This document shows positions 12,638-42,202 of a DNA stretch of 64,000 nt, in pieces (within the stretch, counting starts at the first letter, position 1; each line of letters begins with the position of its first letter). This DNA is from an uncultured Clostridia bacterium (GTDB taxonomy: Bacteria; Bacillota; Clostridia; Christensenellales; HGM11417), in contig CALVJY010000006.1 of NCBI GenBank assembly GCA_944332455.1, positions 24,623 through 88,622 of the forward strand, given 5' to 3'. The notes beneath the pieces were generated by a model. The model saw only the letters and a list, made by a program, of their open reading frames with translations, was not told the DNA's origin and ran no database searches. The position numbers were made by a program, and so were the translations under genes.

Positions 12638-12810
12638 CCTCCGGACGCCCCTTCCTCGGACGGCTCCCCGGCAGATCGCGGCACAAGGCTTTCGCCCCGG
12701 ACGACAAAACAAACAAGCTTCAAGATCTTCCTGAAAAGCGCGGTCCGTCAGTCTCAAAAAACGCCCCGGCAGACCAGACCCGGGAGCCGCGGGAACAAAT
12801 CCTTCCCCTC

Positions 12811-12990
12811 AAAAGGCCCTGATATGCACGAAAAGCGGAACCTCAAACGACTCGGGGCCTTGGTGCTCTCCGGCGTCTTCAATAGGCCCTGATATGCATG
12901 AAGAGCAGAACTTCAGACGATTCGGGGCATTGGCGCTCTCCGGCGCGCTTCAAAAGGTCCCGATATGCACGAAGAGCAGAACCTTGAAAA
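12811..12990. repeat. 70-bp tandem repeat (about 2.6 copies)
   Basis: Units start at 12811, 12881 and 12952, each opening with AA(A/T)AGG(C/T)CC(T/C)GATATGCA and then GAA(A/G)AGC(G/A)GAAC. The first two full units share a central TCGGGGC and GCTCTCCGGCG block. The third unit is interrupted by an inverted copy of its start, creating the hairpin of the adjacent RNA element. The array sits directly downstream of that element on the minus strand. Confidence 0.85.
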
Positions 12991-13078
12991 AGATTCTGCT
13001 CTTCGTGCATATGATAAGGGGGAAAATGATGAGCGATTTGAAACCGAAGCCGTGAAGTCTGTTCCCGACCTCGATTGT
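12963..13078 (-). ncRNA. Candidate small RNA, repeat-element copy A
   Basis: Predicted from a promoter at 13085-13113 to a 19-bp perfect hairpin (12963-12981 with 12994-13012, 12-nt loop). It contains the same 22-nt segment (13013-13034) as copies B and C, but its variable part and hairpin sequence differ from theirs. There is no classical U tract after the hairpin, so the 3' end is uncertain; transcription may continue through the 70-bp repeats. Confidence 0.55.
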
Positions 13079-13084
13079 GCCTTT

Positions 13085-13113
13085 ATTATACCACCTCGTG
13101 AAAAATTTGTAAA
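13085..13113 (-). promoter_or_regulatory. Promoter of element copy A
   Basis: On the minus strand, TTTACA, a 17-bp spacer and a perfect TATAAT. The spacer is nearly identical to those of copies B and C. Confidence 0.8.
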
Positions 13114-13235: not shown

Positions 13236-13463
13236 TCATTTCCAAAATAGTTCCCGGGGGTCGATCTTCAACACGCTCATCAGCTTGAGAAGGTCGGCGA
13301 TGCCGGGGTCTCTCCGCCCTTGCTCCCAGCTGGCATAGGCGCTCTCGGATATGCCCAGCTGCCCGGCGACTTCCCTTCTGGACAGCTGTCTGAGTTGGCG
13401 AAGTTTTTTTAAATGCGCGCCAAATGCTTCGGCTGAGATCAATCGTTCTTTCATGTCTTTCAT
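13236..13463 (-). CDS. Small XRE-type HTH regulator 1
   Basis: A 75-residue protein consisting of one helix-turn-helix domain (LSRREVAGQLGISESAYASWEQGRRDPGIADLLKL), ending DPRELFWK. It is a clear paralogue of the protein encoded at 13619-13846, with which it shares most of its sequence. Such proteins act as dimeric repressors, often of neighbouring operons. It may be a duplicate with its own target. Confidence 0.85.
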   Translation of the reverse strand: MKDMKERLISAEAFGAHLKKLRQLRQLSRREVAGQLGISESAYASWEQGRRDPGIADLLKLMSVLKIDPRELFWK

Positions 13464-13618: not shown

Positions 13619-13846
13619 CTATTTCCAAAATAGCTCCCGGGGATCGATCTCCAGCACCTTCAGCAGATTGATCAGGTCGGCAATGCTGGGATCCCTCCGC
13701 CCCTGTTCCCAGTTGGCATAGGTGCTTTCAGCCACGCCCAGCTGTTCGGCCACTTTTTTCTGCGACAGCTGTTTGAAATCCCGAAATTCTTTCAAACGAG
13801 GTCCGAATTCCTCAGGCGAAATCAGTTTTTCATTTTTCCCGGTCAC
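13619..13846 (-). CDS. Small XRE-type HTH regulator 2
   Basis: A 75-residue single-domain HTH protein (LSQKKVAEQLGVAESTYANWEQGRRDPSIADLINLL), ending DPRELFWK. It is paralogous to the gene at 13236-13463 and divergent from the unknown gene at 13959. A short palindrome (AGTCA AAA TGACT, 13888-13900) touches the -35 box of that gene, a natural position for autoregulation or repression of the neighbour. A two-gene module of regulator plus unknown protein is plausible but unproven. Confidence 0.87.
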   Translation of the reverse strand: MTGKNEKLISPEEFGPRLKEFRDFKQLSQKKVAEQLGVAESTYANWEQGRRDPSIADLINLLKVLEIDPRELFWK

Positions 13847-41196: not shown

Positions 41197-41355
41197 GCCG
41201 ATCGATCGGCTTTTTACCGCAAAAGCCGATTCTTTTTGATCGGTATTTTCCCGCAGCCGGGCGCCGATCCCTTTCGATCGGCATTTTACCCCAATAAGCC
41301 GATCCTTTTCGATCGGCAGCTTACCGCAATCGGGAGCCGATCCCCTTCGATCGGC
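41197..41355. repeat. Array of five GCCGATC-type hairpins
   Basis: Five inverted repeats of GCCGATC/GATCGGC at 41197-41210, 41225-41244, 41263-41282, 41298-41317 and 41336-41355, with loops of 0-8 nt. Each is followed by T-containing TTTTTACC, ATTTTCCC, ATTTTACC, AGCTTACC or AGCTTTTC. Stems are nearly identical while loops vary (for example TCTTTTTG, CTTTTC-like). The array lies 112 bp after the cca stop and may act as a multiplied terminator. Confidence 0.88.
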
Positions 41356-41403
41356 AGCTTTTCACGATAAACTAAAAGCAAATGTGCCGAATCAGCCGGA
41401 ATA

Positions 41404-41516
41404 AGCCGAAAGGGCAGATCCAGAGGATCTGCCCTTTCGGCTATTTAAGATAAGGGGGAAAATGATGAGCAAAATTCAGGAAACCTTGACCGCGGAAGTT
41501 CCGCAACCTTGATTGT
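41404..41516 (-). ncRNA. Candidate small RNA, repeat-element copy B
   Basis: From a consensus promoter, a leader with a GCGGAA/TTCCGC hairpin, then the invariant 22-nt C-rich segment (41449-41470), then an 18-bp perfect stem (41404-41421 with 41425-41442, 3-nt loop). It is closely related to copy C. No U tract follows the stem (TTATTCC), so the 3' end is not certain. On the opposite strand the same segment looks like a ribosome-binding site plus ATG opening a 16-codon frame, an alternative reading. Confidence 0.6.
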
Positions 41517-41522
41517 GCCTTT

Positions 41523-41551
41523 ATTATACCACCTTGTGAAAAATTTGTCAA
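41523..41551 (-). promoter_or_regulatory. Perfect consensus promoter of element copy B
   Basis: On the minus strand, TTGACA, a 17-bp spacer and TATAAT. Both hexamers are perfect. Confidence 0.9.
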
Positions 41552-42056
41552 GCGTTATCTTGTGAAATTTTAAACAATTTTAAAAAATTTTTTTCCGGTT
41601 CTTTTCAGCCGGTTTGGAAAAAATTTTTCCCGGGCTTTTTCACCTCTCTCCGCGGGAGGTTCTGCCTTTTCAAACCTGTCCTCCGCAGCTCTCTCGGCCG
41701 GCAGCAGCCGTTTTCGGGAAGCCCTCAAAGCCCCTCCCCCGCTCTGTCCTCCGAGGCTTTTCCCGGTCGGCGGCCTCCGTTCGGAGCCTTGGCTTCGGCG
41801 GCAGGGGGACGGCCATTGAGGTGCAGGGTTCCTGCCCGTCCGGTTTCATGGAACAATTGAACGAGGAAAGGCGCGGCCTTGGGATGGGTCCCTCCCGCAG
41901 TCTCCCCCGGCTCCGGTTTTTCTTCGGCGGCCGACGGAAGCGCCGCAGCTGTCCCCTCAACGAAGAGCGGGGACAACCGCTTTCCTCTCCCTTTTCGGGC
42001 TCTTTTTTTACCGGCTGCGGAGGACAGGGATGCCAAAATGCCGATGGACCGGAAGA

Positions 42057-42167
42057 AGCCGAAAGGGCAGATCCAGAGGACCTGCCCTTTCGGCTATAAG
42101 ATAAGGGGGAAAATGATGAGCAAAATTCAGGAAACCCCGGCTGCGGAGCTCCCGCAACCTTGATTGT
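42057..42167 (-). ncRNA. Candidate small RNA, repeat-element copy C
   Basis: Same layout as copy B, with the invariant segment at 42100-42121 and a hairpin at 42057-42074/42078-42095. Relative to copy B one stem base has changed. The minus-strand RNA keeps a G-U pair there, whereas the plus-strand RNA would have an A-C mismatch. This supports the minus-strand product as the folded RNA. The leader hairpin also differs (GCGG/CCGC) but can still form. Confidence 0.62.
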
Positions 42168-42173
42168 GCCTTT

Positions 42174-42202
42174 ATTATACCACCTTGTGAAAAATTTGTC
42201 AA
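42174..42202 (-). promoter_or_regulatory. Perfect consensus promoter of element copy C
   Basis: On the minus strand, TTGACA, a 17-bp spacer and TATAAT, with the same spacer sequence as copy B. Confidence 0.9.

What the first reader, a model, noticed from the sequence alone, without database searches (positions are those of the whole stretch)
41404..42202. Three-copy minus-strand RNA element with an invariant anti-Shine-Dalgarno-like segment
Copies at about 12963-13113, 41404-41551 and 42057-42202 share: a minus-strand promoter (TTGACA or TTTACA, exactly 17 bp, perfect TATAAT), an identical 22-nt segment (13013-13034, 41449-41470, 42100-42121) and an 18-19 bp hairpin 66-75 nt after the predicted start. 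The segment read as RNA contains UUUUCCCCCUUAU and is exactly antisense to AAGGGGGAAAATGATGAGC, which looks like a Shine-Dalgarno site and start codon. Sequences around it vary between copies while it does not. This resembles C-rich-motif regulatory RNAs that block ribosome binding. The family, to my knowledge, is not one of the standard described RNAs.
Basis: partly seen in the sequence, partly recalled or inferred. Interest (0 to 1): 0.8.

Follow-up and report, generated by a model that had tools for sequence, protein, structure and literature searches.

The report
Order-wide small RNA matching start sites
The three window copies belong to a gene family found in many Clostridia, mostly from animal guts, that likely makes a small RNA carrying an invariant stretch complementary to a typical ribosome-binding site plus start codon, and this RNA is predicted to shut off translation of some carbohydrate-metabolism genes.

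Summary
In detail: all three copies have the stated minus-strand promoter, the identical 22-nt segment and a long hairpin. The genome holds three more copies, one without a clear promoter. The segment recurs through the same taxonomic order (156 of 396 genomes at up to 2 mismatches, a few of them gene starts; 2 control hits), near-universal in some families and unmatched in others. 372 genomes of other orders gave no exact match. Relatives show one layout: sigma-A-type promoter, variable 5' part, UCAU[C/A]AUUUUCCCCCUU inside a conserved 25-nt core, then a covarying hairpin, often with a U-tract. Rfam has no match at its cut-offs. It is neither a leader of the next gene nor a conserved plus-strand peptide. 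This fits an independent small RNA. The core complements a whole translation start region. A target hypothesis from one genome, tested on others, gives core-specific pairing for FGGY sugar-kinase starts (0 of 100 shuffled cores as good) and weaker support for glgC; MFS_2 transporters gave mixed results. Translational repression of carbohydrate genes is therefore likely but unproven. Transcription was not tested.

The parts
41546..41551 (-). copy 2 -35 element TTGACA
   Evidence: 12 of 12 match with 17-nt spacer
41523..41528 (-). copy 2 -10 element TATAAT (start of RNA predicted near 41516)
   Evidence: transcription start inferred
41449..41470 (-). copy 2 conserved core GCTCATCATTTTCCCCCTTATC
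   Evidence: conserved across the order
41404..41442 (-). copy 2 terminator-like hairpin, 18 bp, weak U-tract
   Evidence: fold
42197..42202 (-). copy 3 -35 element TTGACA
42174..42179 (-). copy 3 -10 element TATAAT
42100..42121 (-). copy 3 conserved core
42057..42095 (-). copy 3 terminator-like hairpin, 18 bp
13108..13113 (-). copy 1 -35 element TTTACA
   Evidence: sequence
13085..13090 (-). copy 1 -10 element TATAAT
   Evidence: sequence
13013..13034 (-). copy 1 conserved core
12963..13012 (-). copy 1 terminator-like hairpin, 23 bp in the fold

Best explanation
Each copy is a short intergenic gene that likely makes a small RNA of about 110-120 nt from its own promoter, and its conserved C-rich core is predicted to pair with the Shine-Dalgarno site and start codon of some carbohydrate-metabolism mRNAs, which would block ribosome binding. 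Shown by sequence: promoter, core, variable 5' part and covarying hairpin kept together across families of one order; no conserved reading frame; no fixed neighbour gene. Inferred: that it is transcribed, that the hairpin ends transcription, that the core is single-stranded in the cell. Predicted from comparative statistics: FGGY sugar kinases as targets, with weaker support for glgC and single striking cases (DUF2804 in G058, an MFS_2 transporter in G078). Hfq was not found in 22 of 24 carriers tested, so the RNA likely acts without Hfq there.
For: Conservation with control: 156 of 396 genomes of the order at <=2 mismatches, 2 control hits (a few of the 156 are gene starts). By my count of its rows: f1 4 of 4, f3 30 of 32, f6 27 of 31, f32 31 of 32, against f4 0 of 33, f31 0 of 18, f24 0 of 11. 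In 177 unique sites (some not true copies), promoter score >=10.5 in 104 against 6 of 531 shuffles; spacer 17 in 95 of the 119 scoring >=10; downstream stem median 17 bp against 7 in shuffles. In 14 copies of one hairpin subgroup, 13 of 17 pairs have compensatory changes, 0 of 500 shuffles as good. Not a leader: next downstream ORF same strand in 39, opposite in 44 of 83 loci. Targets: hypothesis from G005, tested on others. FGGY starts in 26 carrier loci (G005 among them): median dG -17.05 against -11.8 in 223 neighbours, p=2.6e-6, 0 of 100 shuffled cores as extreme. Without G005 (25 loci): z=-6.05 against shuffles that keep UCAU and CCCCC, 0 of 40; glgC z=-3.83, 0 of 40. By genus, G005 left out: FGGY 14 of 17 below background median, p=4.2e-4; glgC 16 of 20, p=6.9e-4. 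Single duplexes: DUF2804 in G058 -31.8, glgC in G058 -31.6, MFS_2 in G078 -27.5, FGGY in G078 -27.1 across nearly the whole core.
Against: No transcript data. In the window's own genome nothing but the copies lies within 3 mismatches of the 22-nt core complement. MFS_2: p=0.005 in a first pass of 26 genes, p=0.0017 and 0 of 200 shuffled cores in a pass of 13, but p=0.24 and 23 of 100 on 12 genes with the stricter gene picking. glgC: 5 of 100 freely shuffled cores as good, where a strand filter had picked several wrong frames, 171 of 200. FGGY starts in sRNA-lacking genomes also pair better than their 72 neighbours (27 loci, p=1.5e-4; 23 of 100 shuffled cores as good; 8 of 200; z=-2.4, 2 of 40), and in carriers even the reversed core gave p=5e-4 for FGGY, so part of the signal is composition or SD strength. 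Ordinary starts in carriers also prefer the real core (z about -2 to -2.9 in G005 and G034, about -0.7 to -1.35 in two non-carriers). The C/A variant of the core does not clearly match the targets of its genomes (p=0.16). Of words complementary to the core, TGATAAG is enriched before genes in carriers (11 against 2.1 for permuted words, 2 of 150 as high) and GATAAGG too (18 against 4.5, 5 of 139), but GGGGGAA and GGGAAAA are not (5 against 6.1; 7 against 17.5); tandem stop codons may explain part. Gene starts came from my own simple rule.
Confidence: 0.62

Rival explanations
1. The small RNA is real but the conserved core is a protein-binding site or a site for one fixed partner RNA; resemblance to an anti-start-site is a by-product of its C-rich sequence.
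For: About 25 strongly conserved nucleotides over dozens of genera is more than a short seed needs; no near-perfect mRNA target shared by carriers was found; MFS_2 gave mixed results.
Against: The most conserved part stops at the complement of SD-spacer-AUG, while the two positions facing the second codon vary (ACTCAT, GTTCAT, GATCAT); FGGY and some glgC starts pair with the core better than with shuffled cores.
Confidence: 0.22
2. The promoter and hairpin serve a transcription attenuator or leader of the downstream gene.
For: Terminator-like hairpin close to the promoter.
Against: Next downstream ORF is opposite in 44 of 83 loci and the neighbouring gene families change between clades.
Confidence: 0.03
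3. The plus strand carries a peptide gene: AAGGGGGAAAATGATGAGC is a real ribosome-binding site and start codon.
For: SD-like spacing and start codon on the plus strand; in 12 of 84 copies the frame stays open through the 114 nt examined.
Against: In the other 72 of 84 copies the frame ends after 2 to 37 codons, and the residues after Met-Ser differ; the conserved promoter points the other way.
Confidence: 0.02
4. A mobile or palindromic repeat element without RNA function.
For: Local duplications in the window genome (651 bp and 871 bp apart).
Against: By my count of the rows, 137 of 156 genomes show a single match; promoter and core stay conserved while the surroundings vary; no exact match in viral contigs.
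Confidence: 0.04

Closest known systems
RsaE / RoxS (Staphylococcus, Bacillus)
   Same: Small RNA of Firmicutes with C-rich motifs that pair with Shine-Dalgarno sites of metabolic mRNAs, Hfq generally not needed in these bacteria (passages read in PMC4409812, PMC5419742, PMC8216469).
   Different: RoxS has four short C-rich regions; this RNA has one CCCCC inside a 25-nt conserved core that also complements the start codon. No Rfam match.
FsrA (Bacillus)
   Same: C-rich regions acting on central-metabolism mRNAs (passage in PMC8216469).
   Different: Three C-rich regions (PMC4409812) and Fur control (PMC8216469); here one core; a Fur site was not looked for.
CsfG (endospore formers)
   Same: Conserved C-rich small RNA (passages in PMC4409812, PMC8216469; the original paper was not held).
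   Different: Three C-rich regions and sigma-F/sigma-G control; here one core and a sigma-A-type promoter.

Membership tests
Trans-acting C-rich, SD-directed small RNAs (class) | Own promoter | tested here: met
   104 of 177 sites score >=10.5 against 6 of 531 shuffles
Trans-acting C-rich, SD-directed small RNAs (class) | Single-stranded C-rich motif between structured parts | tested here: inconclusive
   Predicted folds: copy 1 leaves the core unpaired; in copies 2 and 3 the minimum-energy folds pair part of it, including C-residues
Trans-acting C-rich, SD-directed small RNAs (class) | Intrinsic terminator | tested here: met
   Stem of 8 bp or more in 165 of 177 (68 of 177 in shuffles); 5 or more T in 10 nt in 110 of 177; weak U-tract in the window copies
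Trans-acting C-rich, SD-directed small RNAs (class) | Pairs with SD of target mRNAs | tested here: inconclusive
   Statistical support for FGGY kinases, weaker for glgC, mixed for MFS_2
Trans-acting C-rich, SD-directed small RNAs (class) | Expressed as a discrete RNA | not testable with these tools
   No RNA-seq at hand
RsaE/RoxS | Matches a known Rfam family | tested here: not met
   0 matches at gathering score in the window; two weak matches to other families at E<=1 in 12 loci. That the library holds an RsaE model is assumed, not checked
RsaE/RoxS | Several C-rich regions | tested here: not met
   One CCCCC core per copy in the six copies of the genome and the relatives seen
CsfG | Forespore sigma-F/sigma-G promoter | tested here: inconclusive
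   95 promoters, chosen for a sigma-A-type score, align to TTGACA/TTTACA-17-TATAAT; sigma-F/G sites were not scanned for
Leader / attenuator | Constant same-strand downstream gene | tested here: not met
   39 same, 44 opposite of 83
Type I antitoxin RNA | Overlaps a toxin gene with the complementary start site | tested here: not met
   No conserved plus-strand frame in 84 copies

The most novel reading that the evidence does not exclude
One order of largely uncultured gut Clostridia runs carbohydrate use through a single Hfq-independent small RNA whose whole 25-nt core is a frozen 'anti-start-site': a template of SD, spacer and AUG that silences any mRNA drifting towards it, with sugar kinases and glycogen synthesis as kept targets.
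Probability: 0.35. Interest if true: 0.8.

Novelty: new variant of a known kind. Interest (0 to 1): 0.62.

Why it matters
Small RNAs conserved over many families of an order are uncommon (my general knowledge), and my three paper searches on these bacteria with small RNA found no described regulator of this kind. A conserved core that complements a complete translation start region, not just a short C-rich seed, would let target sets be read from genome sequence and makes Hfq-independent control of carbohydrate genes testable in a cultured carrier.

Tried and rejected
Known Rfam family: none. Viral origin: 0 exact matches in viral contigs. Distribution outside the order: in 372 genomes of other orders there was no exact match; 49 genomes had a match at 1 (G729 only) or 2 mismatches. 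Loci of 23 of these 49 were looked at: many lie at the start of a long reading frame, and none showed, by eye, promoter plus hairpin; the other 26 were not looked at. Near-perfect mRNA target: AAGGGGGAAAA with ATG within 6 nt in 16 carrier genomes is, apart from five other places, the sRNA itself. MFS_2 as a class: mixed, see above. Multi-copy CCTCATAATGTTCCCCCTTA-type sites in G195 and G237 looked like extra copies but lack the sRNA layout. C/A variant tracking its targets: not significant. Plus-strand peptide and leader: rejected. A peptide read through the core on the sRNA strand: not supported, no frame has an open start in more than 37 of 84 copies. Papers: the core letters in three spellings, 0 of 5.39 million; Christensenellales, Borkfalkia or Christensenellaceae with small RNA: 0, 1 and 3 papers, none relevant by title. 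Only passages were read of PMC4409812, PMC5419742, PMC8216469 and PMC12456014; other papers were seen as listings.

Full report
The three window copies carry an identical 22-nt segment at 13013-13034, 41449-41470 and 42100-42121, each behind a minus-strand promoter (12 of 12 consensus with a 17-nt spacer in two copies, TTTACA in the third) and in front of a long hairpin. The RNAs from near the predicted start to the hairpin end (112-118 nt) fold with z = -6.0, -7.4 and -9.4. Two further copies 871 bp apart lie on contig C2, and one with a mismatch and no clear promoter on C5.

The element is a conserved family. With the 22-nt core and up to 3 mismatches, 24 of 61 genomes (the window's own included) have a match, with 1 control hit; several of the 3-mismatch hits are coding or gene starts. 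In 396 genomes of the order, 156 have a match at up to 2 mismatches with 2 control hits; some of these too are gene starts and not the RNA. By my count of the rows the distribution is by family: f1 4 of 4, f3 30 of 32, f6 27 of 31, f32 31 of 32, against f4 0 of 33, f31 0 of 18, f24 0 of 11. In 372 genomes of other orders there is no exact match; 49 had near matches, of which 23 were looked at and none had promoter plus hairpin by eye. NCBI places Borkfalkia in Christensenellales and Pumilibacter in Eubacteriales; that the GTDB order is Christensenellales is my inference.

Anatomy. In 177 unique sites (a few not true copies), a promoter score of 10.5 or more occurs in 104 against 6 of 531 shuffles. 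Among the 119 that score 10 or more, the spacer is 17 in 95 and the -10 element ends 16-67 nt before the core. The downstream stem is 17 bp at the median against 7 in shuffles, and 110 of 177 have 5 or more T in the 10 nt at its end. The upstream 50 nt fold better than shuffles (-8.9 against -5.9 kcal/mol). TCAT[AC]ATTTTCCCCCTT is 99-100% conserved per position, GC before it 89-95% and ATCATA after it 80-94% (biased upwards by the one-mismatch search). In 14 copies chosen as one hairpin subgroup, 13 of 17 pairs show changes on both sides, 0 of 500 shuffles as good. The stems differ between subgroups.

What it is not. Rfam has nothing at gathering score in the window and nothing relevant in 12 loci at E<=1. 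The next downstream ORF has the same strand in 39 and the opposite in 44 of 83 loci, so it is no leader; the upstream neighbour is on the same strand in 62 of 82; in 11 of 83 the core falls inside some ORF of 100 or more codons by the simple rule used. The plus-strand frame from the apparent start codon is not conserved in 84 diverse copies: 2 to 37 codons, with 12 open through the stretch examined.

How it most likely works. The core is the complement of AAGGGGG-AAAAU-K-AUGA: SD, spacer and start codon. GGGGG-type SDs are uncommon in two carriers: about 1% of SD-bearing ATG starts in samples of G005 and G034, against 9.2% and 6.5% in the sRNA-lacking G055 and G037 (base composition differs, so this is only a hint). 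In G005 the strongest predicted duplex among 296 starts is an FGGY kinase, with glgC, glgD, a phosphofructokinase, two proton pyrophosphatases and transporters high in the list, and also ribosomal protein L1 and others (names from my reading except FGGY and DUF2804, and glgC elsewhere by model). I tested this on other genomes; each search gave loci for at most 30 places. FGGY starts, 26 of 30 loci usable, G005 included: median -17.05 against -11.8 kcal/mol for 223 neighbours, p=2.6e-6, and no shuffled core of 100 gave so large a difference. FGGY in sRNA-lacking genomes, 27 of 30 loci: difference -3.4, p=1.5e-4, matched by 23 of 100 shuffled cores. glgC, 26 loci: difference -3.15, p=9.9e-5, 5 of 100. 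MFS_2, 12 usable: p=0.24, 23 of 100. Two earlier passes with looser gene picking gave FGGY p=6.2e-8 (27 genes; the reversed core also p=5e-4) and MFS_2 p=0.005 (26 genes), and, with a strand filter that dropped about half, FGGY p=3.1e-4 (0 of 200), MFS_2 p=0.0017 (0 of 200), glgC p=0.17 (171 of 200, several wrong frames) and FGGY in non-carriers p=0.022 (8 of 200). Without the G005 gene and against 40 shuffles that keep UCAU and CCCCC: FGGY z=-6.05, glgC -3.83, MFS_2 -2.1, FGGY in non-carriers -2.4; ordinary starts of G005 and G034 give about -2 to -2.9. One value per genus: FGGY 14 of 17 and glgC 16 of 20 below the background median. Single duplexes cover nearly the whole core, for example FGGY in G078 and DUF2804 and glgC in G058. 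EF-G-like genes in L147 and L150 pair at about -27, but that was computed with the A-variant core while at least L147 carries the C variant. Words complementary to the 3' part of the core are enriched before genes in carriers (TGATAAG 11 against 2.1 in 924 starts, 0 in 227 starts of non-carriers; no test between the two sets was run), words for the GGGGGAAAA part are not, and tandem stop codons may explain some of it. Hfq was found in 2 of 24 carriers (G000 weakly, and G003) and 5 of 18 non-carriers.

Against this reading: no transcript, no near-perfect target in the window's own genome, one target class with mixed results, part of the FGGY signal shared by non-carriers, and the core's C/A variant does not clearly follow its targets (p=0.16). 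I put 0.62 on a trans-acting start-site-blocking RNA with carbohydrate-gene targets; that it is a small RNA gene at all I hold at above 0.9.

Novelty. It works like RsaE/RoxS, FsrA and CsfG, which use C-rich motifs (RoxS on SD sites; passages in PMC4409812, PMC5419742, PMC8216469), but it differs from them in the features tested. Three paper searches on the taxon and one on the core letters found no description.

Noticed in passing
window 12809-12984; 41211-41356; L006 near the core: Direct repeats with spacing of 70-73 nt lie just downstream of the sRNA hairpins; at copy 1 and, by eye, in L006 the repeat unit includes one arm of the terminator hairpin.
   Followed up: partly
L230-L234 (G195), L236-L239 (G237): A multi-copy repeat with CCTCATAATGTTCCCCCTTA / CCTCATAATTTTCCCCCTTT, in G195 often near contig ends, without the sRNA layout.
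   Followed up: partly
L240 (G252:C34): Two extra sRNA-like copies with core CCTCATAATTTTCCCCCT followed at once by a GC-rich hairpin and T-rich stretch.
   Followed up: no
upstream of the -35 element, 95 aligned promoters: A-rich run before the -35 and a recurring GTGTAA-like start of the RNA; a possible regulator site was not examined.
   Followed up: no
carrier genomes of f3, f6, f25: 8-21 matches to the MFS_2 sugar-transporter family per genome in the 16 genomes of these families searched, which seems many for genomes of 1.3-1.9 Mb.
   Followed up: no
window 13236-13463 and 13619-13846, minus strand: Two similar small HTH (Cro/C1-type) genes in a row just upstream of copy 1.
   Followed up: no
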